64,000 nucleotides of DNA from assembly GCF_014236855.1 (NCBI RefSeq), contig NZ_CP051261.1:2418001-2482000 (forward strand), given 5' to 3'. The position numbers were made by a program, and so were the translations under genes. The stretch is from Xanthomonas sp. SI. Lineage in GTDB: Bacteria; Pseudomonadota; Gammaproteobacteria; Xanthomonadales; Xanthomonadaceae. Each line of letters opens with the position of its first letter. Within the stretch, counting starts at the first letter, position 1. Below, in pieces: positions 22,540-44,725 of the stretch. The notes beneath the pieces were generated by a model. It did no database searches and had not been told where the DNA came from. It worked only from the letters and a program-made list of their open reading frames with translations.

Positions 22540-22553
22540 TGAAAACGATTACA
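22540..22553. promoter_or_regulatory. Predicted LacI-family operator at lacI
   Basis: TGAAAACGATTACA fits the palindrome TGWAANCGNTTWCA, which also occurs at 30097-30110 and 44581-44594. It lies 45 nt before the lacI start, a position that suits autoregulation. The match is seen in the sequence; regulator identity is inferred from proximity. Confidence 0.65.
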
Positions 22554-22597
22554 GTCCGCGCCAGTTTCTCAATGTCTCGGCCGCGGAGGGCGGCACG

Positions 22598-23617
22598 ATG
22601 GCGAAGAGCGCGGTCACCATCAAAGATGTCGCACGCGAGGCCCGGGTATCGGTGGCCACGGTGTCGCGTGCGCTCAACGGGCACGAGAACGTCGCCGAGC
22701 CGGTGCGCAAGTTGGTGCTGGAAGTGGCCGAGCGGCTGCGCTACAGCCCGCATGCGGCCGCGCGCAGCCTCAGCAGTCGCCGTACCCAGACCCTGGGTGT
22801 GGTGCTGCCGGACCTGTACGGCGAGTTCTTCTCCGAGTTGATCCGTGGCATCGACGGCGCGGCGCGCGCGCGCCGCCAGCATCTGCTGGTGTCCAGCTAC
22901 CACGGCGATCCGGAAGAGCAGGGCCGCGCGCTGCGCGCCATGCGCGGGCGCGTGGATGGCCTGCTGGTGCTGTCGCCGTACGCCGAGCGGCCTGGTTTCC
23001 TCACCGACAACCTGCCGCAGGCGCTGCCGACGGTGCTGATCAACACCTATCTGCCGGGCGCCGAATATCCGGTGCTGAGCATCGACGACCATGCCGGCGC
23101 GATGGCGATGACCGAGCACCTGCTGGCGATGGGCCATCGCCGCATCGCCTTCGTCGGCGGCCCGGAACTGAACTTCGATGCGCGCGAACGCCTGCGCGGG
23201 TTCCGCGACGCGATCGCCGCGCATCCGGGCGAGGTGCAGGGCCAGGAGTTTCCCGGACAGTTCGACGAAGCCTCGGGCCATCGTGCCGGGCAGGCGATGC
23301 TGCAGTCGGGCACGTTGCCCGACGCGGTGTTCGCCGCCAACGACATGACCGCGCTCGGCTGCCTGTACGCCTTCGCCCAGGCCGGCGTGCGCGTGCCCGA
23401 CGACATCGCGCTGGCCGGCTTCGACGACATCCCGCTGGCGCGTTTCGTTCACCCGTCTCTCACCACCATGCAGGTGAGTATCGCCGGCCTCGGCGAGCAG
23501 GCGATGCGGCGCCTGCTGCAGTTGATCGACCAACCGGGCAACGACGAGGGGCTGCGGCAGACGCTGACGCCGCTGCTCGTCGTGCGCGATTCCAGTCGCA
23601 AGGTCAGTAAGGAATAG
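22598..23617 (+). CDS. LacI family transcriptional regulator
   Basis: A 339-residue regulator. The N-terminal helix-turn-helix (about 7-27: TIKDVAREARVSVATVSRAL) and hinge helix (about 50-60) are followed by a periplasmic-binding-protein-like sugar domain (DAVFAANDMTALG and LAGFDDIPLARFVHP). GGAGGG lies 7 nt before the ATG. It heads the carbohydrate locus and probably represses receptors, hydrolase and transporter until a sugar ligand binds. The sugar itself cannot be read from the sequence. Confidence 0.92.
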   Translation: MAKSAVTIKDVAREARVSVATVSRALNGHENVAEPVRKLVLEVAERLRYSPHAAARSLSSRRTQTLGVVLPDLYGEFFSELIRGIDGAARARRQHLLVSSYHGDPEEQGRALRAMRGRVDGLLVLSPYAERPGFLTDNLPQALPTVLINTYLPGAEYPVLSIDDHAGAMAMTEHLLAMGHRRIAFVGGPELNFDARERLRGFRDAIAAHPGEVQGQEFPGQFDEASGHRAGQAMLQSGTLPDAVFAANDMTALGCLYAFAQAGVRVPDDIALAGFDDIPLARFVHPSLTTMQVSIAGLGEQAMRRLLQLIDQPGNDEGLRQTLTPLLVVRDSSRKVSKE

Positions 23618-23734
23618 GTGACGCCACATCGTCGTCGCCCGTGTCGCCATGTCGTTCGTAACGCTTCACTTGCTGCACTTTTTCGCTTGCTTCAAGCAAT
23701 CGCAACACCAACCAAGAACCACCCTGGAGGTTTC

Positions 23735-26698
23735 ATGCATCATCGTTCTCAGACCGCGGCTAGGCCTGCGCGCAAGCTTCTCACCTGTGCCCTGGCAAGT
23801 TGCCTGCTGCTGAGCGCTGCGCCGTCGTTCGCGCAGAGCACCGCCGCCACGATCCGTGGGCAGGTCGCGCTGGATTCGGCGCCGTCGGCGCAAGCGCAGG
23901 TCACCGCGACCAATCTGGCGACCGGTCTGTCGCGTACCGTGCAGGTCAACAACGGCAGCTATGCGGTCGGCGGCCTGCCGCCGGGCTCGTACCGCATCGA
24001 CCTGACCGCCAATGGCCAGACCACCTCGCAGAACGTCACCGTGCAGGTCGGCCAGACCGCGACGCTGAACCTCGGCGGCGCCGCGCCGGCCGCCACCGCC
24101 AGCGAAGGCGCCACCACGCTCGACGCGGTGCAGGTCACTGCGCCGCCGGTGCTGGTGGAGACCCGCACCTCCGAGAACGCCACCTACATCTCCAACGTGC
24201 AGATCGAGAAGCTGCCGCAGGCCACGCGCAACTTCCTGGAACTGGCCGATAGCGTGCCGAGCGTGCAGTTCCAGCGCGACGCCAAGGGCAACACCACGGT
24301 GCGCTCCGGCGCGACTTCGGCCAACGGCACCAACGTCTACATCGACGGCATCAGCCAGAAGAACTACGTGCTGACCGGCGGCGTCAGCGGCCAGGACTCC
24401 AGCCGCGGCAATCCGTTCCCGCAGTCGGCGATCGGCGAGTACAAGGTCATCACCTCCAACTACAAGGCCGAGTTCGACCAGGTCAGCAGCGCGGCGATCG
24501 TCGCCTCGACCAAGTCCGGCGGCAACGATTTCCACGGCAGCTTCTTCTGGGATACCACCAACGACGACTGGCGCGCCGAGAGCCCGCTGGAACGCGAGGC
24601 CGGCAAGCGCGACGATTTCTCCGAGACCCAGTACGGGGCGACGTTCAGTGGCCCGATCCTGAAGGATCGCGCGCACTTCTTCGTCGCCTACGAGGCCAAG
24701 GAATACACCACGCCCAATACGGTGATCCCGGGCGGCATCTATGCCGATCGCGTCGATCAGCTGCCGGGCGAACTGCAGCCGCTGGTCACCACCTACAGCA
24801 CTCCGTTCAAGGAAGACCTGTATTTCGGCAAGATCGACTGGACCATCGGCGACAACAGCCTGTTCGAACTGAGCGGCAAGTACCGCAAGGAAGACGAACT
24901 GTCCGACATCGGCGAGACCACCACCTACCAGCACGGCAGCACCAACGGGCAGGAAGAGAAGCGCGCCAACCTGCGCTGGCAGTACACCGGCGCCGCGTTC
25001 CTCAACGATCTGAACCTGAGCTACGAGAGCGCGTACTGGACCCAGGATCCGCTGACCAACGGCAGCGGCTATGTGCTGTCGTACGTGCCGCAGGCCGGCA
25101 ACGAGACCACCATCCTCACCGCCGGCGCCGGCAGCAGCTACCAGAACAAGGGGCAGGAAGGCTGGACCCTGCAGGACGACCTGACCTTGAACAGCATGGA
25201 CTGGCACGGCAGCCATACGGTCAAGATGGGCTTCAAGTACAAGGACATCGAGCTGGATTCGACCCAGATCAATCCGGCCAATCCGCAGTACTACTACAAC
25301 ATCCTGACCGACACCGACACGCCGTACCGGGTGCGCTGGGGCGACACCAGCGGCGGTTCGGTGGTGTCCAAGAACAAGCAGTACGGCATCTATCTGCAGG
25401 ACGACTGGGAAGTCAACGAGCACCTGACGCTCAACCTCGGCGTGCGCTACGACTACGAGAAGACCCCCTCGTTCCTCGACTTCGTCACCCCGGGCGACGT
25501 TGCCAGCGCGCTGCAGAACTGGAGCAACCTGGACAACGCCAACTACGACATCTCCAACTACATCAGCAACGGCCATAACCGCAAGGCGTTCAAGGATGCC
25601 TGGCAGCCGCGGCTGGGCTTCTCCTACGACCTGTTCGGCGACCAGGCGCACGTGATCTATGGCGGTGCCGGCCGTGCCTACGACCGCAACATCTTCGACT
25701 ACCTGGCGCTGGAGCAGCTCAACAACAGCTTCAAGTCGTACAGCTACTACTTCAACAGCGCCAACAACGCCTGCCTGGGCGACCCGTGCGTGCCCTGGAA
25801 CGAGAGCTACGCCACCCAGGCCGGCCTGGACGGGTTGGCGTCGGGCAACACCGGCGGCGGCGGCCGCGAGATCTACCTGATCGACAACAACATCAAGGTG
25901 CCGTACTCCGACCAGTTCAGCATCGGCATGCGCAACATGGTGCATCTGTGGGGCAACGACTGGTACACCGACGTGACCCTGAGCCGGATCGTGAGCAAGG
26001 ACGGCTTCGTGTTCCTGCGCGGCAACCGCCGTGCCGACGGTTCGTTCTTCCTGCCCGGCACCACCTCCGGCGTGCCGACCGATTCGCCCAACGGCTACAG
26101 CGCGATCGTGCTGGGCACCAACGGCCTGGAAACGCGCAATAACCAGCTGGCGCTGAAGCTGGACAAGCCGTACGACAAGGAGTCGGGCTGGGGCCTGACC
26201 GTGGCCTACACCTTCTCCGACGCCAAGGAAAACCGCCAGTACGGCGAGCACTACGCGCTGGACCAGGCGTCGATGGCCGGCTATGGCTGGCGCGAGGCCG
26301 GCGGCATCCCGAAGAACCGCCTGGTGGTGACCGGCATCTACGAGTTGCCGTACGCCATCACCCTGTCCGGCAAGCTGTCGCTGGCCAGCCAGACGCCGCG
26401 CTACGGCACCAACTGCCTGGCCGGCAACGACCAGTGCTATATCATCCAGTACAAGCCGGATTCCACGCTGGGCTACAAGGAATTCAGCCTGGCGGCGAAC
26501 AAGGAATGGGATACCGGCGCGGGCATCAAGTTCAACGTGCGCGCCGACGTCATCAACCTGTTCAACTGGACCAACTACGCCGACTACAACACCGATACCG
26601 GGACCTACGACGACCTCAACACGTCGTACGGCTCCGCGAACGGCGTGTTGGCGTCGCCGATGCGTACGTTCAAGCTGTCGTTCGGCCTGAACTGGTGA
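23735..26698 (+). CDS. TonB-dependent receptor, Oar-like (copy 1)
   Basis: A 987-residue outer-membrane receptor. A signal peptide (about 1-33) is followed by a carboxypeptidase-regulatory-like beta domain (about 40-115), a TonB-box-like LDAVQVTAP, a plug domain (NFLELADSVPSVQFQ, KSGGNDFHG) and a large beta-barrel ending in the aromatic FGLNW. GGAGG precedes the ATG by 4 nt. It probably imports an oligosaccharide, given its position between a LacI regulator and glycoside-processing genes. Its paralogue follows directly, and both share a related leader. Confidence 0.93.
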   Translation: MHHRSQTAARPARKLLTCALASCLLLSAAPSFAQSTAATIRGQVALDSAPSAQAQVTATNLATGLSRTVQVNNGSYAVGGLPPGSYRIDLTANGQTTSQNVTVQVGQTATLNLGGAAPAATASEGATTLDAVQVTAPPVLVETRTSENATYISNVQIEKLPQATRNFLELADSVPSVQFQRDAKGNTTVRSGATSANGTNVYIDGISQKNYVLTGGVSGQDSSRGNPFPQSAIGEYKVITSNYKAEFDQVSSAAIVASTKSGGNDFHGSFFWDTTNDDWRAESPLEREAGKRDDFSETQYGATFSGPILKDRAHFFVAYEAKEYTTPNTVIPGGIYADRVDQLPGELQPLVTTYSTPFKEDLYFGKIDWTIGDNSLFELSGKYRKEDELSDIGETTTYQHGSTNGQEEKRANLRWQYTGAAFLNDLNLSYESAYWTQDPLTNGSGYVLSYVPQAGNETTILTAGAGSSYQNKGQEGWTLQDDLTLNSMDWHGSHTVKMGFKYKDIELDSTQINPANPQYYYNILTDTDTPYRVRWGDTSGGSVVSKNKQYGIYLQDDWEVNEHLTLNLGVRYDYEKTPSFLDFVTPGDVASALQNWSNLDNANYDISNYISNGHNRKAFKDAWQPRLGFSYDLFGDQAHVIYGGAGRAYDRNIFDYLALEQLNNSFKSYSYYFNSANNACLGDPCVPWNESYATQAGLDGLASGNTGGGGREIYLIDNNIKVPYSDQFSIGMRNMVHLWGNDWYTDVTLSRIVSKDGFVFLRGNRRADGSFFLPGTTSGVPTDSPNGYSAIVLGTNGLETRNNQLALKLDKPYDKESGWGLTVAYTFSDAKENRQYGEHYALDQASMAGYGWREAGGIPKNRLVVTGIYELPYAITLSGKLSLASQTPRYGTNCLAGNDQCYIIQYKPDSTLGYKEFSLAANKEWDTGAGIKFNVRADVINLFNWTNYADYNTDTGTYDDLNTSYGSANGVLASPMRTFKLSFGLNW

Positions 26699-26704
26699 TT
26701 CCAG

Positions 26705-26741
26705 CCGCCGCGGCTCCCGACGCCGTTCGGGGCCGCGGCGG
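26705..26741 (+). terminator. Hairpin after the first receptor gene
   Basis: CCGCCGCGGC (26705-26714) pairs with GCCGCGGCGG (26732-26741), with a few more pairs (CCCGA/TCGGG) inside. It lies directly after the receptor stop. There is no good U-tract, so it may stabilise the mRNA end or only partly terminate. Confidence 0.5.
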
Positions 26742-27044
26742 TTGCAGGGACATGTTCTTGGTGTGGATGCACGCGATTGCCGGGACGCGCACGAGGTCGA
26801 AACAGCGCGTTGTCGTACATGCGGTGCCGACGCAGCGCGAATCAGCGCTCGGCGATCCGATGCGACCTTGCCGTGCGTCGTGGGCAGTGCCGGTGGAAAC
26901 GTTGGAAAAACATGGGCCGCGCAACGTCGTCGCTGCCCGTGTCGCTGCTGCTGATGCGTCACTTGTTGGATTTTTCTTTCTTTCTCGCATTCGGCCACTT
27001 CGCTCTTTCTGCAACCAGAACATGAAGAACCCCGGGAGGGTTTC
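26742..27044. other. Leader region of second receptor, duplicated from the first
   Basis: About 300 nt with no supportable gene. The last 125 nt resemble the region before the first receptor (23620-23734). Both contain CGTCGTCG followed by GCCCGTGTCGC, then a T/C-rich tract, then a purine-rich ribosome site and TTTCATG. This suggests that gene and promoter/leader were duplicated together. Confidence 0.55.
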
Positions 27045-30020
27045 ATGAAACATTCCATTCAATCGACGTGCCGGCCGCAACGCAGCGTACTTGCCTGCGC
27101 ACTGGCCGGCTGTTTGCTGCTTGCCGCCGCGCCGGTGCTCGCGCAGAGTACCGCCGCCACCATTCGCGGCCAGGTGACGGCCGATTCGGCCGCTGCCGGC
27201 AGCGCGAAAGTGACCGCGACCAACCTGGCGACCGGCTTCAGCCGCAGCGTCCAGACCACCGCGTCCGGCAGTTATTCGGTCGCTGGCTTGCCGCCGGGCA
27301 CCTACCGGGTCGACGTGCAGGCGGGCGACAGCACCAGCAGCCAGACCATCACCGTGCAGGTCGGCCAGGCGGCGACGCTGAATCTCGCCGCCGGTGGCGC
27401 CGGCACTGCCGCTGGCGGCGGCGCCACCACCCTGGACACGGTGCAGGTCACCGCGCCGCTGGCGGTGGAAACCAAGACCTCCGAGGTGGCCACCTACGTC
27501 ACCACGCGCCAGATCGAGGCCTTGCCGCAGAGCTCGCGCAACTTCCTGGCCTTCGCCGACACCGTGCCCGGCATGGTGTTCGAGACCAGCCCCAGCGACG
27601 GCTCGACCAAGCTGCAGTCCGGCGCGCAGAGCGCGAACAACATCAACGTGTTCATCGACGGCGTCGGCCAGAAGAACTACGTGTTGGCCGGCGGCATCAC
27701 CGGGCAGGACTCCAGCCGCGGCAATCCGTTCCCGCAGCTGGCGATCGGCGAGTACAAGGTCATCACCTCCAACTACAAGGCCGAGTACGACCAGCTCAGC
27801 AGCGCGGCGGTGTCGGCGGTGACCAAGTCCGGTGGCAACGATTTCCACGGCAGCTTCTTCTGGGACTACAGCAATTCCGATTGGCGCGCGGCGCGCGAGT
27901 CGGAGAAGGAGCAGGGCAGCAAGGACCGCTCCAAGGACGAGCAGTACGGCTTCTCGTTCGGCGGCCCGATCGTCAAGGACGTGGCGCATTTCTTCGTGAC
28001 CTACGAGGGCAAGGACTACTCCGCGCCGCAGGACGTGTATCCGGGCCAGGGCTATACCGTGGCCGAACTGCCCGCGTCGGTGCAGTCGGCGGTGCGCAAC
28101 AGCACCGTGCCGTTCCACGAGGACCTGTACTTCGGCAAGATCGACTGGGCGATCGACGACAACAACCTGCTCGAATTGACCGCCAAGCGCCGCGAGGAAA
28201 CCGGCCTGGGCAACATCGGCGCGCAGAACACCGAGTCCTATGCCACCGACAACCAGGTGGACGAAACCCGGGTGGACCTGCGCTGGCAGCTGACCATGGG
28301 CGACTGGCTCAACGATGCGCACCTGACCTACGAGAAGGCGTTCTGGTCGCTGGAGCCGAAGAACTTCGGCGACGGCTATGTGCTGACCGACGGCGCCGGC
28401 AACACCGGCAACGTGATCCTGGCCACCGGCGCCGGTTCCGGCGGCTACCAGCACAAGGGCCAGACCGGCCACTCGTTCCAGGACGACCTGACCTTCTCCG
28501 GCTGGGAAGGCCACACCCTCAAGATGGGCGTGAAGTACAAGCAGGTCGAACTGACCACGCTCGAGCAGCAGCCGTACAACCCGCAGTACTACTACGACAT
28601 CAACGACAGCACCACGGTGCCGTACTACATCAGCTTCGCCTCCGGCCTCACCGGTACCAGCCAGGGCGCGCTGACCTCCAAGAACAAGCAGTTCGGCCTC
28701 TATTTCCAGGACGACTGGGAGGTCAACGACCGGCTGACCCTGAACCTGGGCCTGCGCTGGGACTACGAAAAGACCCCGAGCTACCTGAACTACGTGACCG
28801 ATCCGGACGTGGTGGCGGCCATCTACGGCCAGGATCCGAACGCGCCGACCGGACAGAGCTACGCGCAGACGCTGGCGCTGGGCGGGATCGACATCTCCAA
28901 CTACATCAGCGACGGCAGCAACCGGCATGCGTTCAAGGATGCCTGGCAGCCGCGCCTGGGCTTCTCCTACGACCTGACCGGCGACCAGAAGCACGTGCTG
29001 TTCGGCGGCGCCGGGCGCTCCTACGACCGCAACCTGTTCGACTACCTGGCGCTGGAGCAGACCAAGGCCACCTACGGCAGCTACGGCTATTCGGTCAACA
29101 CCGCCGCGCATCCGTGCACGGTCGGCGTCAACAATTGCCTGGAGTGGGACGACGCGCTGCTGCAGCAGTCCACGCTCGATGGGCTGGTGGCGAACAACTC
29201 GGCGGCCGGCCGCGAGGTCGATCTGCTGGCCAACAATCTGAAGGTGCCGTATTCGGACCAGTTCAGCCTCGGCATCCGCGACACGTTCCAGATGCTGGGC
29301 TACGACTGGAACAGTTCGGTGACCCTGCAGCGCATCGTGTCCAAGGATGGGTTGGTGTTCCTGCTCGGCAATCGCCTGCCCGACGGCAGCTTCTTCGAGC
29401 AAGGCACCATTTCCGGTTCGCCGTGGAGCAATGGCGTACCGGGCTACGGTTCGCTGATCCTGGGCATGAACGGCCTGGAGACGCGCAACAACTCGCTGCT
29501 GCTGAGCCTGGAGAAGCCGTACACCTCCGAATCGCCGTGGAGCGTGAACTTCGCCTACACCTACAGCAACGCCAAGGAGAACCGCCAGTTCGGCGAGCAC
29601 TATGCGCTGGACTACCCGACGCTCGCCGGCTACGGCTGGTTCACCTCCGGCGGCGTCGCGCGGCACCGCCTGGTGGTCAGCGGCGTCGCCGACGGTCCCT
29701 GGGACACCACGTTCTCCGGCAAGCTGACCCTGTCCACGCCGGAGTACTACTACACAACCTATTGCCCGTCGGACGGGCAGTGCCGCATCCGCCAGTTCCA
29801 TCCCGACACCACGCTGGGCATCAAGCAGCTGGACCTGGCGGCGCAGAAGGTGTGGGACACCGGTTCCAACGTCAAGTTGAAGATGCGCCTGGATGTGCTG
29901 AACGTCTTCAACTGGAAGAACTACGACTCCTACAGCGTCGATTGGGACAGCGGCACCTATACCGGCTACGACCAGTACGCGACCCGGACCGCCAAGCTGT
30001 CGCTGGGCCTGGATTGGTAA
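27045..30020 (+). CDS. TonB-dependent receptor, Oar-like (copy 2)
   Basis: A 991-residue paralogue of the preceding receptor with the same architecture: signal peptide (cleavage near VLAQ), regulatory-like beta domain, TonB-box-like LDTVQVTAP, plug and barrel ending SLGLDW. Long identical blocks remain (for example GEYKVITSNYKAE and DAWQPRLGFSYDL), while extracellular loop regions differ, so the two may bind different oligomers. GGGAGGG precedes the ATG. It is not obviously co-transcribed with the next gene, because a hairpin and an operator-like site intervene. Confidence 0.93.
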   Translation: MKHSIQSTCRPQRSVLACALAGCLLLAAAPVLAQSTAATIRGQVTADSAAAGSAKVTATNLATGFSRSVQTTASGSYSVAGLPPGTYRVDVQAGDSTSSQTITVQVGQAATLNLAAGGAGTAAGGGATTLDTVQVTAPLAVETKTSEVATYVTTRQIEALPQSSRNFLAFADTVPGMVFETSPSDGSTKLQSGAQSANNINVFIDGVGQKNYVLAGGITGQDSSRGNPFPQLAIGEYKVITSNYKAEYDQLSSAAVSAVTKSGGNDFHGSFFWDYSNSDWRAARESEKEQGSKDRSKDEQYGFSFGGPIVKDVAHFFVTYEGKDYSAPQDVYPGQGYTVAELPASVQSAVRNSTVPFHEDLYFGKIDWAIDDNNLLELTAKRREETGLGNIGAQNTESYATDNQVDETRVDLRWQLTMGDWLNDAHLTYEKAFWSLEPKNFGDGYVLTDGAGNTGNVILATGAGSGGYQHKGQTGHSFQDDLTFSGWEGHTLKMGVKYKQVELTTLEQQPYNPQYYYDINDSTTVPYYISFASGLTGTSQGALTSKNKQFGLYFQDDWEVNDRLTLNLGLRWDYEKTPSYLNYVTDPDVVAAIYGQDPNAPTGQSYAQTLALGGIDISNYISDGSNRHAFKDAWQPRLGFSYDLTGDQKHVLFGGAGRSYDRNLFDYLALEQTKATYGSYGYSVNTAAHPCTVGVNNCLEWDDALLQQSTLDGLVANNSAAGREVDLLANNLKVPYSDQFSLGIRDTFQMLGYDWNSSVTLQRIVSKDGLVFLLGNRLPDGSFFEQGTISGSPWSNGVPGYGSLILGMNGLETRNNSLLLSLEKPYTSESPWSVNFAYTYSNAKENRQFGEHYALDYPTLAGYGWFTSGGVARHRLVVSGVADGPWDTTFSGKLTLSTPEYYYTTYCPSDGQCRIRQFHPDTTLGIKQLDLAAQKVWDTGSNVKLKMRLDVLNVFNWKNYDSYSVDWDSGTYTGYDQYATRTAKLSLGLDW

Positions 30021-30029
30021 AGGCTTTGC

Positions 30030-30064
30030 CGCGGCCACCCCGGAACGTTTAGGGTGGTCGCGGC
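30030..30064 (+). terminator. Hairpin after the second receptor gene
   Basis: CCGCGGCCACCC (30030-30041) pairs with GGGTGGTCGCGG (30053-30064) with one G-T pair and an 11-nt loop. It sits 10 nt after the receptor stop and just ahead of the promoter of the next operon. No U-tract follows. Confidence 0.55.
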
Positions 30065-30078
30065 GAGGCGGGAAGTAG

Positions 30079-30110
30079 GATAATTTCGCACATGCATGTA
30101 AACGATTTCA
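30079..30110 (+). promoter_or_regulatory. Promoter and LacI-type operator of GH144-ABC operon
   Basis: A -10-like GATAAT is at 30079-30084. The palindromic site TGTAAACGATTTCA is at 30097-30110, just downstream of where transcription would start and 16 nt before the start codon at 30127. That position suits repression. The site fits TGWAANCGNTTWCA, shared with the lacI and ATPase/zwf regions. No good -35 hexamer is evident. Confidence 0.6.
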
Positions 30111-30126
30111 CAGGGGTGTCGAAGGC

Positions 30127-35007: not shown

Positions 35008-35039
35008 AACAAGCCAACGACACAACGGGAACGAGGTTC

Positions 35040-38000
35040 ATGACGGGAGCGGCGATGACGAGCAGACGGTGGACGATGGCCATCCTGGGCCTGGCGGCGG
35101 CGCAGGCCTTCGCCGCGGCGCCGACCGCACCGGTCCCGCTGGACGGCTTCAACAATCTCGACAACTGGCAGATCGTCGTCTCCAACCAGGTCACCGCCTC
35201 GACCCGGCTGGTGCAGGCCGCCAGCGGCGGCCGCGCCAAGGCGATCTGCCTGGATTACGACTTCAACGGCGTCTCCGGCTACGCCGGGATCCGCCGCGCG
35301 ATCCCGATCGACTATCCGGACAACTACCAGCTCGCGTTCCAGCTGCGCGGCGATTCGCCGAGCAACGACCTGCAGTTCAAGCTGGTCGATGCCAGTGGCG
35401 ACAACGTGTGGTGGGTCAACCGGCCGCGCTACGATTTTCCCAAGCAGTGGAGCACGGTCAGCTTCAAGAAGCGGCAGATCGACAAGGCCTGGGGGCCGAG
35501 CCCGGACAAGGAACTCAAGCGCAGCGCGCAGGTCGAGTTCACCATCTACAACCAGGTCGGCGGCAAGGGCACGGTGTGCTTCGATCAGCTGACCCTGACC
35601 CCGCTGCCGCCGCAGGACACTTCGCCGCTGACGGTGAAGGTCAGCGCCGACACCGCGCCGGCGCTGGAGCAGCGCATCGCCGACGGCAAGGCCGACACGG
35701 TGTGGTACAGCGGCAACGCCAAGACCCAGACGATCATGCTCGACCTGGGCAAGGTGCGCGAGTTCGGCGGCGCCAAGGTGCAATGGGCGCCGGGCGTGTA
35801 CGCCTCGCGCTACAAACTGCAGGGCTCGGCCGACGGCCGCAGCTGGCGCGAACTGCGCAACGTCACCGCCGGCAACGGCGGCACCGACTGGTTGCCGATG
35901 CCAGAAACCGAGGCGCGCTACGTGCGCATCGACCTGGAGGACGGCCCCAGCTTCCGCTACGGCATCGCCGACATCGCGCTGCAGCCGCTGGCCTTCGCCG
36001 CCACCCCGAACGATTTCGTCAAGTCGGTGGCGGCCGATTCCACCCGCGGCTGGTTCCCGCGCGGCTTCAGCGGCGAGCAGCCGTACTGGACCATCGTCGG
36101 CCTGGACGGCGGCCGCGAGCAGGGCCTGGTCGGCGAGGACGGCGCGATCGAAGTGGGCAAGGGCGGCTTCAGCATCGAGCCGTTCCTGCTGCTGGACGGC
36201 AAGCGCCTGAGCTGGGCCGACGTGAAGACCGCGCAGAGCCTGCAGGACGACTACCTGCCGATCCCCAGCGTGGACTGGAGCCACGACAACGCCGGCCTGC
36301 GCATCACCGCCTTCGTGCAGGGCACGCCGGAGCAGGCGCAGCTGGTGGCGCGCTACCGGCTCAGCAACCCGAGCAAGAAGCCGCACGACTACACTCTGGC
36401 GCTGGCGGTGCGGCCGTTCCAGGTGAATCCGCCCAGCCAGTTCCTCAACACCGTCGGCGGGGTCAGTCCGATCCATCTGCTGGCGTTCGACGGCGCCCAG
36501 GTGCAGGTCAACGGCGAGCCGCGCGTGTTCGCGGTGCAGAAGCCCGACGCGGCCTATGCCACCGCGTTCGACGCCGGCATCGACATCGAGCGCCTGACCG
36601 CCGACAGCGCCGCGCTGCCGCAGCAGGCGTCCGATGCCGACGGCCTGGCCTCGGGCGCGCTGTTGTACCGCGGGCGCCTGGCCCCGGGCGAAGTGCGCGA
36701 AGTGGCCTTGCTGATCCCGCAGACCGGCGCGCAGGCGCTGCCGTCCGGGTTCGACGCGGCGCGCGCGCAACAGCAGGTGGCCGAGCAGTGGCGCGAGAAG
36801 CTGGACCGGGTTCAGGTGAACGTCCCGGCCGAGGGCAAGCCGCTGGCCGACACCTTGCGCACCGCGCTGGCGCACATGCTGATCTCGCGGATCGGGCCGC
36901 GCCTGCAGCCGGGCACGCGCTCGTATTCGCGCAGCTGGATCCGCGACGGCGCGATGATTTCCGAAGGCCTGCTGCGCCTGGGCCGCGCCGACGTGGCGCG
37001 CGAATACCTGGAGTGGTACGCGCCGTACCAGTTCGCCAACGGCATGGTGCCGTGCTGCGTGGACGACCGCGGCAGCGACCCGGTGCCGGAGAACGACAGC
37101 CACGGCGAGCTGATCTTCGGCGTCGCCGACTACTACCGCTACAGCGGCGACCGCGCGTTCCTGGAAAAGATGTGGCCGCACGTGCTGGCCGCGTACGAGT
37201 ACATGGAACAGCTGCGGCAGAGCGAACGCACCGAGGAGAACCGGGCGCGCAACCCGGCGTTCTACGGGATGATGCCGGTGTCGATCAGCCACGAAGGCTA
37301 TTCGGCCAAGCCGATGCATTCGTACTGGGACAACTTCTGGGCGCTGCGCGGCTACAAGGACGCGGTGGAGATCGCCGCCGAGCTGGGGCGCGTCGACGAT
37401 GCGGCGCGCTTCGCCGCCGCGCGCGACGAGTTCCGCCAGGACCTGTACGCCTCGCTGCAGACCGCCACGCAGCAGCACCACATCGATTTCCTGCCCGGTT
37501 CGGCCGAGCTTGGCGATTTCGATCCCACCTCCACCACCATCGCGCTGGCGCCGGGCGGGGAGCAGGGCCGGCTGCCGCCGCAGCTGCTGGGCAACACCTT
37601 CGAGCGCTATTGGGGCGAGTTCGCCAGCCGCCGCGACGGCAAGCGCGAGTGGAAGGACTACACCCCGTACGAATGGCGCAACGTCGCCGCGTTCGTGCGC
37701 CTGGGCTGGCGCGAGCGCGCCTGGGACGCGACCCAGTTCTTCTTCAAGGACCGCGCGCCGCAGCCGTGGAACCAGTGGGCCGAGGTGGTCTCGCGCACGC
37801 CGCGCAAGCCGTTCTTCGTCGGCGACCTGCCGCACGCCTGGGTGGCGTCGGACTTCGTGCGTTCGACGCTGGACATGTTCGCCTATGCGCGCGACATCGA
37901 CGACAGCCTGGTGCTGGCGGCCGGCGTGCCGGCGGCCTGGTTCGACGGCAAGGGCATCGCGATCCAGGACCTGCGCACTCCGCAGGGCGAACTGAGCTAC

Positions 38001-38198
38001 CAGCTGCGGCGGCAGAAGAACCGCCTGACACTTGGCATCGGCGGCGGCCTGCGCGTGCCCAGCGGCGGCCTGGTGCTGCCGTGGCCGTATCCGGGCGAAC
38101 CCGGGCGCACCCTGGTCAACGGCGAAGCGGCGCAGTGGGAAAACGGCGAGCTGCGGATCCGTTCGTTGCCGGCGGATGTGCAGATTGAGGTGCGTTGA
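35040..38198 (+). CDS. Large multidomain exported glycoside hydrolase
   Basis: A 1052-residue exported protein. A signal peptide (about 1-27) is followed by a carbohydrate-binding-like beta domain (about 30-200), a discoidin/F5-8C-like domain (about 205-325: YASRYKLQGSADGRSWREL and ARYVRIDLEDG), a beta-sandwich (about 340-600) and an (alpha/alpha)6 catalytic domain (about 610-1050). The catalytic part shows RSYSRSWIRDGAMISEGLL, NGMVPCCVDDRGSDP and NDSHGELIF, reminiscent of GH15/GH63-like inverting glucosidases. The CAZy family is not certain. By context it finishes degradation of the oligosaccharide imported by the neighbouring system. An ATG at 35055 is an alternative start. Confidence 0.85.
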   Translation: MTGAAMTSRRWTMAILGLAAAQAFAAAPTAPVPLDGFNNLDNWQIVVSNQVTASTRLVQAASGGRAKAICLDYDFNGVSGYAGIRRAIPIDYPDNYQLAFQLRGDSPSNDLQFKLVDASGDNVWWVNRPRYDFPKQWSTVSFKKRQIDKAWGPSPDKELKRSAQVEFTIYNQVGGKGTVCFDQLTLTPLPPQDTSPLTVKVSADTAPALEQRIADGKADTVWYSGNAKTQTIMLDLGKVREFGGAKVQWAPGVYASRYKLQGSADGRSWRELRNVTAGNGGTDWLPMPETEARYVRIDLEDGPSFRYGIADIALQPLAFAATPNDFVKSVAADSTRGWFPRGFSGEQPYWTIVGLDGGREQGLVGEDGAIEVGKGGFSIEPFLLLDGKRLSWADVKTAQSLQDDYLPIPSVDWSHDNAGLRITAFVQGTPEQAQLVARYRLSNPSKKPHDYTLALAVRPFQVNPPSQFLNTVGGVSPIHLLAFDGAQVQVNGEPRVFAVQKPDAAYATAFDAGIDIERLTADSAALPQQASDADGLASGALLYRGRLAPGEVREVALLIPQTGAQALPSGFDAARAQQQVAEQWREKLDRVQVNVPAEGKPLADTLRTALAHMLISRIGPRLQPGTRSYSRSWIRDGAMISEGLLRLGRADVAREYLEWYAPYQFANGMVPCCVDDRGSDPVPENDSHGELIFGVADYYRYSGDRAFLEKMWPHVLAAYEYMEQLRQSERTEENRARNPAFYGMMPVSISHEGYSAKPMHSYWDNFWALRGYKDAVEIAAELGRVDDAARFAAARDEFRQDLYASLQTATQQHHIDFLPGSAELGDFDPTSTTIALAPGGEQGRLPPQLLGNTFERYWGEFASRRDGKREWKDYTPYEWRNVAAFVRLGWRERAWDATQFFFKDRAPQPWNQWAEVVSRTPRKPFFVGDLPHAWVASDFVRSTLDMFAYARDIDDSLVLAAGVPAAWFDGKGIAIQDLRTPQGELSYQLRRQKNRLTLGIGGGLRVPSGGLVLPWPYPGEPGRTLVNGEAAQWENGELRIRSLPADVQIEVR

Positions 38199-38202
38199 GG
38201 CC

Positions 38203-38341
38203 GGGATTCGGGATTGGGGATTCGGGATTCGCAACAGCAAAAGCAAAAGCAAAAAAAGCGCCGGCATGCCGGCGCTTTTTTGTTTCCCGATCGCGGGGAA
38301 CCGGGCTTTAGCGAATCCCTAATCCCTAATCTCTAATCCCG
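38203..38341. repeat. Mosaic GGGATTCGGGATT element holding a terminator
   Basis: The left arm (38203-38232) has GGGATTCGGGATTGGGGATT units, followed by GCAACAGCAAAAGC, the inverted form of the core seen at 41034-41127. The right arm (38306-38341) is the inverted form (CCCTAATCCCTAATCTCTAA). It contains the hairpin at 38253-38280. The right arm overlaps the last codons and stop of eda. Confidence 0.8.
38253..38280. terminator. Bidirectional intrinsic terminator
   Basis: A perfect palindrome made of AAAAAGCGCCGGC and its complement (28 nt) has A-runs on the left and T-runs on the right, so it can work in both directions. It serves the convergent glycosidase (+) and eda (-) transcripts. Confidence 0.9.
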
Positions 38342-38982
38342 CGCACAATCGCCGCCGCCTTCGCCGCGCTCTCGCGCACCTTGTCCCACTCGCCGTTGGC
38401 CAGCCAGTCCTTCGGCACCATCCACGAGCCGCCGATGCAGACCACGTTCGGCTGCGCCAGGTACTCGGCGGCGGTGCTTTCGCCGATGCCGCCGGTGGGG
38501 CACAGCTTCAGGTCCGCCAGCGGGCCGGCCAGGCCCTTGAGCATCGCCAGGCCGCCGACCGCGGTGGCCGGGAACAGCTTGCAGACGCGGAAGCCGCGCG
38601 CCATCAGCGCCAGCAGTTCGGTCGGGGTGGCCGCGCCCGGCACCACCGGCAGCGGCGCCCGCGCCAGCGCGTCGGCCAGCGCCGGCGGCGTGCCCGGGGT
38701 GACGATGAAATCGGCGCCGGCGTCGATCGCCTGCTGCAGTTGGGTGTCGGTGAGCACGGTGCCGGCGCCGATCTTGATGTCCGGCAGTTCGCGCTTGAGC
38801 ATCGCCAGCGCGTCCATCGCTACCGGCGTGCGCAGGGTCAGCTCGATCGCGGGCAGGCCGCCTTCGAGCAATGCGGCGGAGACGCGGCGCGCCTCGTCCA
38901 GGCTGTGCACGGTCACCACCGGCAGGATGCCGGCGGCGCGCAGGAGCTGTTCGGCGGTGTTCTGGTGTTCGGCAATCGTCAT
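38326..38982 (-). CDS. eda: KDPG/KHG aldolase (Entner-Doudoroff)
   Basis: A 218-residue class I aldolase that cleaves 2-keto-3-deoxy-6-phosphogluconate to pyruvate and glyceraldehyde 3-phosphate. The catalytic Glu47 is in IELTLRTP, and the Schiff-base Lys135 is in RVCKLFPA. TGGIGESTAAEYL binds phosphate. The last residues (GIRD) and the TAG stop are encoded by a GGGATTAGAGATTAG repeat unit. It is the last gene of the zwf-glk-pgl-edd-eda series, 97 nt after edd. Confidence 0.96.
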   Translation of the reverse strand: MTIAEHQNTAEQLLRAAGILPVVTVHSLDEARRVSAALLEGGLPAIELTLRTPVAMDALAMLKRELPDIKIGAGTVLTDTQLQQAIDAGADFIVTPGTPPALADALARAPLPVVPGAATPTELLALMARGFRVCKLFPATAVGGLAMLKGLAGPLADLKLCPTGGIGESTAAEYLAQPNVVCIGGSWMVPKDWLANGEWDKVRESAAKAAAIVRGIRD

Positions 38983-39079
38983 GGCAATCTCGTAGTCGCG
39001 ATGAGGGCGGGAGTGCATCGGCCGCAGGCGGCCGACGCTGGGGTGGCGTGGCGCCGTGTGGCGCCGGTCGGCCGCAGGT

Positions 39080-40996
39080 TTAGGCGTCCTTCGCCTCGTG
39101 CGGTGCGTCGGCGGCCTCGCTGCTGCGGCCCAGGTCGTACTCGGCGTCGTAGTTCCAGTCGTCGCCGTCGGCCGCGGGCGGGCCGCAGGAGATCGACATC
39201 GCACCCTGGTCGGCGGGGCCGACCACGCGGCGATTGATCGCGAACAGGTTGCGGCCGATGTCGTGCGCGGCCGGCGCGGTGTTCGGCGCCAGCGCACGCG
39301 CCGCCCACTCGGCGGCATCCACCAGCACTTCCAGGGTGCCGGCTTCGCCGTCCAGGCGCACGATGTCGCCTTCGCGCACGCGCGCGATCGGGCCGCCGCG
39401 CGCCGCTTCCGGGGTCACGTGGATCGCCGCCGGGAACTTGCCCGAGGCGCCGGACAGGCGCCCGTCGGTGACCAGCGCCACGCGCCGGCCCTGGTTCTGC
39501 AGCAGGCCCAGCAGCGGCGCCAGCGAATGCAGTTCCGGCATGCCGTTGGCGCGTGGTCCCTGGTAGCGCAGCACCACCACGAAGTCGTGCGGCAGCACGC
39601 CGGCGGCGTGCAGCTTGTTCAAGGCCTGCGGCGCATCGATGACCACGGCCGGCGCCTCGATGGTGCGGAATTCCGGCTTCACCGCCGACAGCTTGATCAG
39701 CGAACGGCCGATATTGCCGCGCAGCAGGCGCAATCCGCCTTGCGCTTCGAACGGATTGGAGGCAGGGCGCACCACGGTTTCGTCGGCGCTCTTGGCCGGG
39801 CTCGGCACGTAGGCCAGCGCGCCGTTCTGCACGCACGGCTCGTCGCCGTAGGCGCGCATGCCGCCGGGCACGATGGTGGCCAGGTCGTCGTGCATCAGCC
39901 CCGCGTCCATCAGCTCGCGGAACACGAAACCCACGCCGCCGGCCGCGGCGAAATGGTTCACGTCGGCTTCGCCGTTGGGATACACGCGGGTCAGCAGCGG
40001 CACGATCTGCGACAGCTCGTCCAGGTCGTCCCAGGTCAGCACGATGCCGGCCGCGCGCGCCACCGCCAGCCAGTGGATGGTGTGGTTGGTGGAGCCGCCG
40101 GTGGACATCAGCGCGACCGCGGCGTTGACGATCGCGCGTTCGTCGATCAGCCGGCCGAGCGGGCGGAAATCGCTGCCCAGCGCGGTGATGCGCAGCGCGC
40201 GCTCGGTGGCCTGCTGGGTCAGCGCGTCGCGCAGCGGCGTGCCCGGATTGACGAACGAGGCGCCGGGCAACTGCACGCCCATCGCTTCCAGCAGCACCTG
40301 GTTGGAATTGGCGGTGCCGTAGAAGGTGCAGGTGCCGGGCGCGTGGTAGGAGGCCGATTCGGCGGCCAGCAGTTCGTCGCGGGTGGCCTGGCCGGCGGCG
40401 TAGCGCTCGCGCACCTCGGCCTTCTGCTTGTTGGGAATGCCCGGGGTCATCGGCCCGGCCGGCACGAACACCGCCGGCAGGTGGCCGAACGCCAGCGCGC
40501 CGATCAACAGGCCGGGCACGATCTTGTCGCACACGCCCAGGTACAGGGTGGTGTCGAACATGTCGTGGCTGAGGCCGATCGCGGTGGCCTGCGCGATCAC
40601 GTCGCGCGAGAACAGCGACAGCTCCATGCCCGGGCGGCCCTGGGTCACGCCGTCGCACATCGCCGGCACGCCGCCGGCGACCTGCGCGGTGGCGCCGAGC
40701 GCGCGCGCGGTGCTGCGGATCATCTCGGGGTAGTGCTCGAACGGCTGGTGCGCCGACAGCATGTCGTTGTAGGCGGTGACGATGCCCAGGTTCGGGGTGA
40801 TCCCGCCTTCCAGCCGGCTCTTGTCGGTCGGGCCGCAGGCGGCGAAGCCGTGCGCCAGGTTGCCGCAGCTCAGGCGGCTGCGGAACGGGCCGTCGCGCAA
40901 TGCGGCGTCGATGCCGGCCAGGTAGGCGCGCCGCGACGGCACGCTGCGCGCGCGGATGCGTTCGGTGATCGCGTGGATTTTCGGATGCAGGCTCAT
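39080..40996 (-). CDS. edd: Phosphogluconate dehydratase
   Basis: A 638-residue [4Fe-4S] dehydratase of the IlvD/Edd family, converting 6-phosphogluconate to KDPG. Signature segments include [30 protein letters not shown] and [14 protein letters not shown]. coli Edd is 603 residues; the extra residues here are mostly at the C-terminus ([15 protein letters not shown]). A mosaic repeat (41034-41127) separates it from pgl upstream. Confidence 0.96.
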
Positions 40997-41033
40997 TGGC
41001 TGACGTGGCTATGAAGTGTGGGGGTGTTGTGAT

Positions 41034-41127
41034 CGGGACTCGGGACCGGGGACTCGGGACTCGAAAGAGCGGGAATGCGGCAGCGCTTTGCTGTTACGAA
41101 TCCCCACTCCCGCATCCCCAATCCCGG
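41034..41127. repeat. Mosaic GGGACTCGGGA element between edd and pgl
   Basis: The left arm (41034-41063) is GGGACTCGGGACCGGGGACT. The core is GCGCTTTGCTGTTACGAA. The right arm (41099-41127) is AATCCCCACTCCCGCATCCC. The core CTTTGCTGTTACG matches the element at 9922-10020 nearly base for base, which argues for one mobile or copied family. It ends 2 nt before the pgl stop codon. Confidence 0.8.
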
Positions 41128-41129
41128 CC

Positions 41130-41845
<716 letters not shown>

Positions 41846-41849
<4 letters not shown>

Positions 41850-42853
41850 GCAACGACTCCTGGGGATTCGCGTTCGGCATCGACCGCATAGGCGGCGGCG
41901 CCGAGCAGACCGGGACGGGGGTGGATCACCGCCAGCGACGGCACCCGCGCCATGATCGACGAAAAGCGGCCCTTGTGCTCGAAGCGCTGGCGGAAGCCGG
42001 AGTGCTGCAGCGCGTCGAGCATCTTCGGCACCAGCCCGCCGGTCAGGAACACGCCGTCCCAGGCGCCGTGCATCAGCACCAGGTCGCCGGCGATGGCGCC
42101 GAACACCGCGCAGAACACGTCGATGGTGCGCATCGCGCGGTAGTCGCCCTGCGCGGCGCGCGCGGTGATGTCCGCCGGCTGCAGCGGGCCCGGGTCGTCG
42201 CCGGCGATCTCGCTGAGCGCGCGATGGATGTTGACCAGGCCGGGGCCGCAGATCAGGCGTTCGTTGGACACGCGCCCGAACTGCTGCGACAGCAGCTCGA
42301 GAATGCGGATTTCCTCGGGCGTGCCCGGCGGGAAGCTGACGTGGCCGCCCTCGGTCTCCAGCGGGTAGCAGCGGCCGCCGCGGATCAGCAGGCCGCCCAC
42401 GCCCAGGCCGGTGCCCGGGCCGATCACGGCATAGTTGCGCGGCTGCGCGATCGGTGCCGGCTGCCACGCCGCGCCGCCGACCTGGACCACGTCCTGCGGC
42501 TGCAGCAGGCTGATCGCCATCGCCTGCGCGGCAAAGTCGTTGATCAGGTGCAGTTCGTCGAAGCCGAGCATGGCGCGGGTGCGCGAACGCGAGATCACCC
42601 ACGGATGGTTGGTGATCCGCGCCTCGTCGCCGTCGACGCGGCCGGCCACGGCGAACACGCCGCTGCGTGCGTCCACCCCGGTCTGCTGCAGGTAGTGGCG
42701 CGCCGCGTCGCCCAGCGACGGGAATTCCACCACCGCATAGGTCTGGGTGCTGTCGTCGAGCAGCGGCGTGGAGGCGCCGAGGTCGGCCAGCGCGAAGCGC
42801 GCATTGGTGCCGCCGATGTCGGCGACCAGCACCGGCCGCAGCGGCGCGCTCAC
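41846..42853 (-). CDS. glk: Glucokinase
   Basis: A 335-residue bacterial glucokinase of the ASKHA fold. The N-terminal phosphate loop is VADIGGTNARFAL; the glucose-contact segments HLINDFAAQA and LETEGGHVSF and the adenosine motif LTGGLVPKM are all present. It phosphorylates free glucose entering the Entner-Doudoroff route. The GTG start overlaps the zwf stop (GTGA) and its own stop overlaps pgl (ATGA). Confidence 0.95.
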
Positions 42854-44313
42854 GGCGTGTCCCGCTGCACGGCGCTGGCATCGTCGGCGGACACGTAGCG
42901 TTCGGCTTCCTGCGGACCCCAGCTGCCGGCCGGGTAGGGCAGCAGCGGCAGTTGCGCCTGTGCCCAGGCATCGCTGACGCTGTCGATCCAGGCCCAGGCC
43001 GCGCGCACTTCGTCGTCGCGCACGAACAGCGCGTGGTTGCCGTTGAGCGCGTCCAGCATCAACCGCTCGTAGGCGATGCGGCGATGCAGGCCGGTCGGCA
43101 CCGACAGTTCCAGTTCCAGCGGCTGCAGTTCCAGCGCGCCCCATTCCGGGCCGGCCAGGCTGCTCATCAGCCCCAGTTCGATGTTCTCCTGCGGCTGCAG
43201 TTGGAAGGTCAGCCGGTTCGGCGCCACGTGCTGCGCGTCGGGGCGCTCGAACAGCCAGTGGGTGACCGGCTTGAGCGTGACCACGATGCGCGTGGTGCGC
43301 TCGGCCAGGCGCTTGCCGGTGCACAGCCGGAACGGCACCCCGGCCCAGCGCCAGTTGTCGATGTAGGCGGTGACGCCGACGAAGGTCTCCACGTCGCTGC
43401 CTTCCGGCGGCTGGTAGGCCTGCGCCTGCTGGCCGTTGATGGTGCCGGCGGTGTAGCGCCCGCGCACGCTGTCGCGCGCGGCGTGCACGGCCTGCAGCGG
43501 ACGCAGCGCGCGCAGCACCTTGACCTTCTCGTCGCGGATGCGGTCCGCCTCCAGCGAGGCCGGCGGCTCCATCGCCACCAGGCACAGCAGCTGCAGGATA
43601 TGGCTCTGGACCATGTCGCGCAGCGCGCCGGAACGCGCGTAGTAGGCGTCGCGGCCGTCCACGCCCTCGCTCTCGGCGACCAGGATCTCCACCGACTCGA
43701 TGTAGTTGCGGTTCCACACCGCCTCCAGCAGCGTGTTGCCGAAGCGCAGCGCGATCAGGTTCTGCACCGCCGCCTTGCCCAGGTAGTGGTCCAGGCGGAA
43801 CACGCGGTCCTCGTCGATCAGCGCGCCGATCGCCTGCAGGATCTCGCGCGCGCTGGCCGAGTCGTGGCCGATCGGCTTCTCCAGCATCAGCCGGTTCGGC
43901 GCGGCCAGCGCGCCGCCCAGGGCCAGGCCCTGGCAGGTGCTGATGTACAGCCCCGGCGGGATCGCCAGGTAGCTGACGCACTTGCGCGAGGCCAGCTCGC
44001 GCACCGCGTCGGCCACCGACTCGGCGTTGCGCAGGTCCACCGAGCGGTAGTCGGTGCGATCCAGCAGCGACTGGATCACCGCCTCGCTGACCTGCGGCAT
44101 CGCCGCCTGCAGCCGCGGCTTGAGGATCTCGTGGAACTTGGCGGTGTCGTGCGGCGACAGCGCCAGCGCGCGGATGCGGAAGTCTTCCGGCAGGAAGCCG
44201 TCGTCGAGCATGCGCAGCAGCGACGGGAACAGGTAGCGCTGGGCCAGATCGCCGGTGGCGCCAAACAGCAGGAACGTATCGTGCATCGACCGGTTTTCGG
44301 TTTCGGGTGACAT
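42850..44313 (-). CDS. zwf: Glucose-6-phosphate 1-dehydrogenase
   Basis: A 487-residue NADP-dependent dehydrogenase, first step of the Entner-Doudoroff and pentose phosphate routes. The coenzyme motif FGATGDLAQRYLFPSL is near the N-terminus, and the substrate-binding peptide reads RLDHYLGKAAVQNLIALRF; the usual residue after GK is Glu, here Ala. I chose the ATG at 44313, which has AGGTGAT about 8 nt upstream. The ATG at 44286 (MHDTFLL) is a real alternative. It is the first gene of the five-gene operon and divergent from the ATPase gene. Confidence 0.94.
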   Translation of the reverse strand: MSPETENRSMHDTFLLFGATGDLAQRYLFPSLLRMLDDGFLPEDFRIRALALSPHDTAKFHEILKPRLQAAMPQVSEAVIQSLLDRTDYRSVDLRNAESVADAVRELASRKCVSYLAIPPGLYISTCQGLALGGALAAPNRLMLEKPIGHDSASAREILQAIGALIDEDRVFRLDHYLGKAAVQNLIALRFGNTLLEAVWNRNYIESVEILVAESEGVDGRDAYYARSGALRDMVQSHILQLLCLVAMEPPASLEADRIRDEKVKVLRALRPLQAVHAARDSVRGRYTAGTINGQQAQAYQPPEGSDVETFVGVTAYIDNWRWAGVPFRLCTGKRLAERTTRIVVTLKPVTHWLFERPDAQHVAPNRLTFQLQPQENIELGLMSSLAGPEWGALELQPLELELSVPTGLHRRIAYERLMLDALNGNHALFVRDDEVRAAWAWIDSVSDAWAQAQLPLLPYPAGSWGPQEAERYVSADDASAVQRDTP

Positions 44314-44725
44314 TTCGTCGATCACCTGGGGGCTAGTAGTGACGTGGCGTTGGTAAGCAAGCGGCGGAAGCGGCCTGTATCCGTCCTGCAGCTCGCGCGT
44401 GGGCATAGCGATGACGACCGCCAGGCGGGACCGCACGATCCGGGAGATGAATACGACTGCCAGACCTCTGAGCATACCTGTCTAATGCCTCAAGCATCAG
44501 AGCCGGCGCTCGGCGCACGCCGGGACGGCGGCGGCTGGCGGTTCGCATCGCAAGCCCTCCCAGGCGTCGATGTTGCCCCGTGAAAACGGTTACATGGCAG
44601 AATACCGCATTGCGATCCCATTGTTGCCTGTGTCGCTGGCACGATGCGAAGCGCATTCGTATGCACTGCCTTCGGGAGGGACCGGCGGCAGCCCGTCTCT
44701 CCAGCCGGAAACCGGATACCGCACC
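44314..44725. promoter_or_regulatory. Divergent control region zwf / sugar ATPase
   Basis: 412 nt between zwf and the ABC ATPase gene, with no supportable protein gene. It contains the LacI-type palindrome at 44581-44594 and must carry the promoters for the Entner-Doudoroff operon and for the ATPase. I found no clear -35/-10 pair. Confidence 0.5.
44581..44594. promoter_or_regulatory. Predicted LacI-family operator at ATPase/zwf
   Basis: TGAAAACGGTTACA fits TGWAANCGNTTWCA and differs at one base from the site before lacI (22540-22553). It is 132 nt ahead of the ATPase start and 268 nt ahead of zwf, so it could control either gene. Confidence 0.62.

What the first reader, a model, noticed from the sequence alone, without database searches (positions are those of the whole stretch)
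22540..44594. One palindrome at three promoters predicts a sugar regulon joining lacI, GH144-ABC operon and ATPase/zwf
Seen: TGAAAACGATTACA (22540), TGTAAACGATTTCA (30097) and TGAAAACGGTTACA (44581) all fit the palindrome TGWAANCGNTTWCA with central CG. Known: LacI-family regulators bind such operators. Inference: the LacI protein encoded at 22598 represses its own gene, the hydrolase-transporter operon, and the divergent ATPase/zwf region, so sugar import and Entner-Doudoroff catabolism respond to one inducer. The three sites are all in control regions and none was noticed inside genes.
Basis: partly seen in the sequence, partly recalled or inferred. Interest (0 to 1): 0.78.

Follow-up and report, generated by a model that had tools for sequence, protein, structure and literature searches.

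The report
LacI regulon for beta-1,2-glucan use
Three copies of one short DNA palindrome mark the switch points of a predicted gene-control circuit by which Xanthomonas and its relatives turn on genes that break down and import beta-1,2-glucan sugars, including a transporter motor gene that lies apart from the rest; the circuit is ordinary in kind, though our searches turned up no description of it.

Summary
The three palindromes are where stated, match exactly, and exceed chance. They behave as conserved operators. In the genus, 18 of 18 genomes with this lacI carry the sites before lacI, GH144 and the ABC ATPase; the two lacI-less genomes have lost the GH144 site and have degraded ATPase sites. 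In 75 further family genomes the ATPase site is exact in 63 and within one mismatch in 66, covering 25 of 27 genera. It is exact in 15 of 16 genomes where the ATPase is at least 77 kb from lacI or on another contig. GH144 is closest to a proven beta-1,2-glucanase, and the ATPase is the genome's only OB_MalK one: it would supply the motor the GH144-linked transporter lacks. The zwf/Entner-Doudoroff part is weaker. The site stays 51-198 bp from the ATPase whatever lies opposite. In 44 of 75 genomes that is a GH1 beta-glucosidase, with the site within 50 bp of its start; zwf, where opposite, is 102-371 bp away. Verdict: a conserved LacI-family regulon of a known kind; zwf control in this genome is unproven.

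The parts
22540..22553 (.). operator 1, TGAAAACGATTACA, 58 bp before lacI
   Evidence: present in 18 of 18 genus genomes with this lacI (17 exact, 1 with 1 mismatch) and in 74 of 74 lacI-bearing GH144 loci at <=1 mismatch (41 exact)
22598..23617 (+). LacI-family regulator, recognition helix VSVATVSR
   Evidence: Pfam LacI and Peripla_BP_3; helix compared with the 10 paralogues
23618..26698 (+). TonB-dependent outer-membrane receptor 1 (OMP_b-brl_4); true start uncertain, possibly about 23939
27045..30020 (+). TonB-dependent outer-membrane receptor 2 (OMP_b-brl_4)
30097..30110 (.). operator 2, TGTAAACGATTTCA, 30 bp before GH144
   Evidence: exact in 18 of 18 lacI-bearing genus genomes, best match 3 and 4 mismatches in the 2 lacI-less ones
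30127..31749 (+). GH144 endo-beta-1,2-glucanase (by homology)
   Evidence: PF10091; closest solved structure 8xul, XCC2207, shown active in PMC12102758 (passages)
31773..33056 (+). ABC sugar-binding protein
   Evidence: closest solved chains 3uor, then Lin1841 5ysb
33053..33934 (+). ABC permease 1
33931..34767 (+). ABC permease 2
35040..38198 (+). F5/8-type-C plus hairpin-glycosidase-like protein, usually next after permease 2 in relatives; no match with <=2 mismatches to the motif in front of it
38326..44325 (-). eda, edd, pgl, glk and zwf (Entner-Doudoroff genes), divergent from the ATPase; possible but unproven target
44581..44594 (.). operator 3, TGAAAACGGTTACA, 145 bp before the ATPase and 256 bp from the zwf start
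44726..45817 (+). MalK/UgpC-type ABC ATPase, the only OB_MalK match of the genome

Best explanation
The LacI-family protein at 22598 is the local repressor of a beta-1,2-glucan (sophoro-oligosaccharide) utilisation regulon. It binds the 14-bp palindrome TGWAANCGNTTWCA at three promoters: its own (lacI and probably the receptor genes behind it), that of GH144-SBP-permease-permease, and that of the lone MalK-type ATPase that completes the transporter. Without substrate the three are repressed; a beta-1,2-gluco-oligosaccharide or a product of it would bind the sugar-binding domain and free the operators. Shown: the sites, their conservation, their co-occurrence with lacI, their loss or degradation in the lacI-less genomes examined, and their persistence where the ATPase is unlinked. 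Inferred: that this protein binds them, repression, the inducer, and operon extents. Direct control of zwf in this organism is possible but is not what keeps the site in place across the family.
For: Exact sites with low chance expectation. All three promoters carry a site in 18 of 18 lacI-bearing genus genomes; the 2 lacI-less ones keep GH144 and the ATPase but have no GH144 site (3 and 4 mismatches) and degraded ATPase sites (1 and 2 mismatches). lacI-upstream site in 74 of 74 lacI-bearing GH144 loci, GH144 site in 53 of 74, a site at the receptor gene start in 7 of the other 21. ATPase site exact in 63 and <=1 mismatch in 66 of 75 family genomes, against means of 0.0 and 0.025 in 40 Markov resamplings, in 25 of 27 genera. 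Exact in 15 of 16 genomes where the ATPase is at least 77 kb from lacI or on another contig. Only OB_MalK ATPase. 2 of 11 LacI-family proteins have this recognition helix. GH144 closest to the characterised XcSGL.
Against: 14 of 74 lacI-bearing loci have no site before GH144 or at the receptor, and 7 of 73 lacI-bearing family genomes have none before the ATPase; six of the 7 are one genus, the seventh is G043. In the examples inspected no alternative palindrome like the motif stood in its place. The 62% paralogue shares the recognition helix and could bind the same sites. The motif also occurs at four other places in the genome. No consensus sigma-70 promoter was found at the three regions. 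No binding or expression data.
Confidence: 0.83

Rival explanations
1. One reading: operator 3 also controls the divergent zwf-glk-pgl-edd-eda genes, so one inducer switches import and Entner-Doudoroff catabolism together.
For: The site lies between the two divergent genes. zwf is the opposite gene in 26 of 75 family genomes (18 with a site), and zwf or glk follows GH1 in the same direction in 24 of 44 GH1 genomes. LacI-family control of zwf operons was predicted elsewhere, e.g. Caulobacter GluR (PMC4052901, section 11 read).
Against: The site sits 102-371 bp from zwf when zwf is opposite, but within 50 bp of the GH1 start when GH1 is opposite, and 51-198 bp from the ATPase throughout. No second site with <=1 mismatch lies from -2000 to -500 of the ATPase in the 75 genomes, a stretch that covers the zwf starts found behind GH1. 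A block nearer zwf (about 44450-44489), conserved also in the lacI-less genomes, may be zwf's own control region (inference).
Confidence: 0.3
2. The palindrome is a generic LacI/GalR-type sequence read by several regulators, above all the 62% paralogue at 5139676; the three sites are shared with it or belong to it.
For: The paralogue has the same recognition helix, and a related site (TGCAAGCGGTTACA, 1 mismatch) lies before its own gene cluster. The GH3 site is kept in 20 of 20 genus genomes including the two that lack this lacI.
Against: The two genus genomes that keep a paralogue-like LacI but lack this lacI have no GH144 site and a degraded ATPase site. The other nine paralogues have different recognition helices.
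Confidence: 0.12
3. The match of three sites is coincidence in AT-rich intergenic DNA.
For: Three of the seven exact genome copies (DUF2628, lhr-like ORF, purB) have no obvious sugar role.
Against: Conservation at the same promoters in the genus and, for the ATPase site, in 25 of 27 other genera.
Confidence: 0.02

Closest known systems
LacI/GalR-family local sugar repressors (general)
   Same: LacI helix-turn-helix and periplasmic-binding-protein-like sensor domain; CG-centred palindrome; site before its own gene; cluster with receptor, glycosidase and transporter
   Different: Below the cut-off of every NCBIfam LacI-family model it matched (best RbsR 211 bits, cut-off 382); substrate is beta-1,2-glucan by inference
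SuxR of Xanthomonas campestris (passages seen in PMC1790865)
   Same: LacI/GalR-family regulator in a locus with a TonB-dependent receptor
   Different: Sucrose locus with a major-facilitator transporter; here an ABC transporter whose ATPase is encoded apart
GluR of Caulobacter (PMC4052901, section 11 read)
   Same: Predicted LacI-family regulon that includes zwf-pgl-edd-glk; close to BglR beta-glucoside regulators
   Different: 20-bp motif, other lineage, central metabolism is its core; here the conserved core is glucanase, transporter and ATPase
XcSGL (XCC2207) GH144 endo-beta-1,2-glucanase (PMC12102758, passages seen)
   Same: Closest solved relative of the GH144 here, 1038 bits
   Different: The passages seen describe the enzyme, not its regulation; the one 'laci' hit in that paper is a bacterial family name

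Membership tests
LacI-family transcription factor | N-terminal LacI helix-turn-helix domain | tested here: met
   PF00356, 56.3 bits, cut-off 27
LacI-family transcription factor | periplasmic-binding-protein-like sugar sensor domain | tested here: met
   PF13377, 128.6 bits, cut-off 26.5
LacI-family transcription factor | CG-centred palindrome before its own gene | tested here: met
   74 of 74 lacI-bearing loci at <=1 mismatch
LacI-family transcription factor | binds that palindrome and responds to a ligand | not testable with these tools
   needs a binding assay
NCBIfam LacI-family models (RbsR, CytR, GalR, PurR and others) | score over the curated cut-off | tested here: not met
   19 models matched, each below its cut-off
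One regulon of lacI, GH144-transporter and ATPase | sites at all three promoters where the regulator is present, lost where it is absent | tested here: met
   genus: 18 of 18 with lacI have them, 2 of 2 without are lost or degraded; exceptions in other lineages
Regulon including zwf/Entner-Doudoroff genes | site kept at promoter distance of zwf independently of the ATPase | tested here: not met
   gap 102-371 bp; no separate site at zwf behind GH1
GH144 endo-beta-1,2-glucanase | homology to characterised GH144 enzymes | tested here: met
   8xul XCC2207 1038 bits, 5gzh 134 bits
GH144 endo-beta-1,2-glucanase | activity on beta-1,2-glucan | not testable with these tools
   shown for XcSGL, not for this protein

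The most novel reading that the evidence does not exclude
An operator kept at a divergent GH1 beta-glucosidase/ATPase promoter in most relatives stayed with the ATPase while the opposite gene was exchanged for zwf or glk. This would wire Entner-Doudoroff metabolism directly into a beta-1,2-glucan regulon, so that one oligosaccharide inducer commands both import and catabolism in Xanthomonas.
Probability: 0.3. Interest if true: 0.55.

Novelty: new member of a known kind. Interest (0 to 1): 0.42.

Why it matters
It assigns a regulator, an operator code and a likely substrate to a receptor-transporter locus found through much of the family. It offers an explanation of how an ABC transporter without its own ATPase gene gets one under the same switch, and gives a test of whether a sugar regulon can gain or lose central-metabolism genes by exchange of neighbours. 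Beta-1,2-glucans are made by bacteria and act in symbiosis and pathogenesis (beginnings of the abstracts of PMC12102758 and PMC11842490 seen), so the natural trigger is of interest.

Tried and rejected
A second operator before lacI (TTAAAACGTTTTTA at 22493, 2 mismatches, 47 bp upstream of operator 1) looked like the partner of the paired sites in other xanthomonads, but by eye it is not kept in the 17 other lacI-bearing genus genomes (the G002 version has 3 mismatches), so I do not count it. The GH3 gene with a 1-mismatch site (590122) was tested as a regulon member; the site is kept in 20 of 20 genus genomes including the two lacI-less ones, so it cannot be assigned to this LacI. Consensus promoter scans found none at the three regions, which says little. 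In the lineages without GH144 or ATPase sites I looked at 11 GH144 and 9 ATPase upstream regions for another CG-centred palindrome; the few found were G+C-rich, unlike the motif, or lay inside zwf, and none recurred. Structure prediction of the 35040-38198 protein was wanted to name its activity and was not available. Literature: ten answered searches listed no paper whose title or abstract start describes this regulator; most listed papers were not opened, so a mention inside them is possible. The LacI comparative study PMC4052901 has no 'Xanthomon' in its main text, but its supplement and the RegPrecise database could not be read, so an earlier prediction is not excluded. and the alignment ignored contig strand and are wrong for the minus-strand genomes; one search replaces them.

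Full report
Observation. The genome, a single 5.25 Mb contig, has 7 exact matches and 16 with at most one mismatch; the reversed control pattern has 1 with at most one mismatch. Over 20 genomes of the genus there are 118 exact matches (my sum of the per-genome counts) against 1 for the control; 53 of the 118 lie at the three promoters studied here (17 + 18 + 18). Named relatives found through the GH144 protein put the window in Xanthomonas; the nearest listed is X. bonasiae, 99% identical in GH144 (very near records may be left out of that list).

Genes. Pfam gives a LacI-family regulator at 22598, two TonB-dependent receptors, GH144 (PF10091) at 30127, a binding protein and two permeases, an F5/8-type-C protein with weak hairpin-glycosidase matches, and on the other strand eda, edd, pgl, glk and zwf; then a MalK/UgpC-type ATPase at 44726. 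The transporter genes beside GH144 include no ATPase. The ATPase at 44726 is the only OB_MalK match of the genome; there are 8 SBP_bac_1 matches, of which the window's scores highest. The closest solved structure of the GH144 protein is XCC2207, an enzyme of X. campestris reported to act on beta-1,2-glucan with narrow specificity (PMC12102758, passages seen). The binding protein is closest to 3uor and then to Lin1841; that Lin1841 binds beta-1,2-gluco-oligosaccharides is recalled, not from a call.

Conservation in the genus. lacI has an orthologue of at least 91% identity in 18 of 20 genomes (the window's own included); the other two, G001 and G013, match only with a protein 60% identical, like the paralogue. 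All 20 keep GH144 and the ATPase. In the 18, the lacI site is exact in 17 and has one mismatch in 1 (G019), the GH144 site is exact in 18, and the ATPase site is exact in 18. In G001 and G013 the GH144 site is gone (best 3 and 4 mismatches) and the ATPase site is degraded (1 and 2 mismatches). This is a natural knock-out, though the two genomes may share one loss event.

Conservation in the family. I examined the 80 best of more GH144 loci. lacI is found in 74, and 74 of these 74 have a site near its start (41 exact, 33 with one mismatch). A GH144 site is present in 53 of the 74 (50 exact, 3 with one mismatch). Of the other 21, 7 have a site at the start of the receptor gene and 14 have none. 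Of the 6 loci without lacI, 3 begin too close to GH144 to show it (site exact) and 3 have about 10 kb of upstream sequence (no site with up to 2 mismatches). For the ATPase, 84 of 150 family genomes have an orthologue at E <= 1e-120, 8 of them in the genus; I took 75 of the other 76 (G074 lies at a contig end and was left out). The site is exact in 63 and within one mismatch in 66; the exact ones start 51-198 bp before the ATPase; 40 Markov resamplings give means of 0.0 and 0.025. The 66 span 25 of the 27 genera sampled. The 9 without it are G059 and G068, which have no lacI match (G068 by exclusion, since the list of misses is cut short), and 7 with lacI: six of one genus (g9) and G043.

Trans action. 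ATPase and lacI are 13-24 kb apart in 57 of the 73 lacI-bearing genomes (48 exact, 3 with one mismatch). In 16 they are at least 77 kb apart or on different contigs, and 15 of these 16 keep an exact site (for some short contigs the true distance is unknown). So the site is kept without linkage. Counting genus and family together, 81 of 91 lacI-bearing genomes have an exact ATPase site and 0 of 4 lacI-less ones do; the hypergeometric value of 3e-4 ignores relatedness. lacI presence here is by best match; orthology of the matches of 54-70% identity rests mostly on their position 13-24 kb from the ATPase, not on a tree.

What operator 3 serves. I classified the nearest recognisable gene opposite the ATPase in the 75 genomes. 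A GH1 beta-glucosidase is opposite in 44, with a site in 44 of 44, lying from 12 bp inside the projected GH1 start to 50 bp before it. zwf is opposite in 26 (site in 18, gap 102-371 bp). glk is opposite in 5 (site in 4, gap 220-284 bp). Within the 2 kb held, zwf follows GH1 in the same direction in 15 and glk in 9. GH1 was confirmed by Pfam in 3 of the 44 (PF00232) and rests on tblastn in the rest. The constant partner is the ATPase, with GH1 the usual second neighbour; in Xanthomonas zwf stands where GH1 stands in most relatives. No second site with at most one mismatch lies from -2000 to -500 in the 75 genomes, so zwf behind GH1 has no operator of its own there. In the window the site is 145 bp from the ATPase and 256 bp from the likely zwf start.

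Which regulator. Eleven LacI-family genes are in the genome. Only this one and the one at 5139676 have the recognition helix VSVATVSR. Recalled, not from a call: E. coli GalR, with a like helix, reads a like palindrome. The paralogue's own cluster (an F5/8-type-C protein, LacI, receptor) has a 1-mismatch site in front. Cross-binding is possible and is the main open point on specificity.

Judgement. The Entner-Doudoroff link is plausible in relatives and unproven here. It is a new member of a known kind; ten answered literature searches listed no description of this regulator, but most listed papers were not opened and RegPrecise and paper supplements were out of reach.

Noticed in passing
G000:C1:590122 (L033:5123): TGTAAACGTTTTCT lies 61 bp before a GH3 (BglX-like) gene; a 1-mismatch site is kept there in 20 of 20 genus genomes, also in the two without this lacI; perhaps a target of the paralogue.
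   Followed up: partly
G000:C1:3217087 (L030:5588): Exact motif copy between a DUF3829 gene and purB; a second TGAAAACGGTTACA copy also appears in several other genus genomes, not checked for position.
   Followed up: no
G000:C1:2211337 (L028:5338): Exact symmetric motif at the start of an ORF that joins an endonuclease/exonuclease/phosphatase domain to a GH3 glycosidase, a combination that struck me as unusual.
   Followed up: no
G000:C1:5136000-5148000 (L039): Paralogous cluster of F5/8-type-C protein, LacI (62% identical) and TonB receptor with a one-mismatch site in front.
   Followed up: partly
L073, L075, L076, L078-L083 (upstream of lacI): Other xanthomonads have two exact sites 46 bp apart before lacI, a possible cooperative or looping pair; not seen in the window's own clade.
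   Followed up: partly
G161, G113, G131, G027, G147, G092 and G043: Genomes with lacI but no site before the ATPase; the two that could be matched to GH144 loci (G131, G043) keep the site before lacI but have none before GH144, as if the regulon had shrunk to self-control.
   Followed up: partly
L088: A record titled Bacillus subtilis carries this locus in a form like the Stenotrophomonas ones; probably a mislabelled or contaminated assembly.
   Followed up: no
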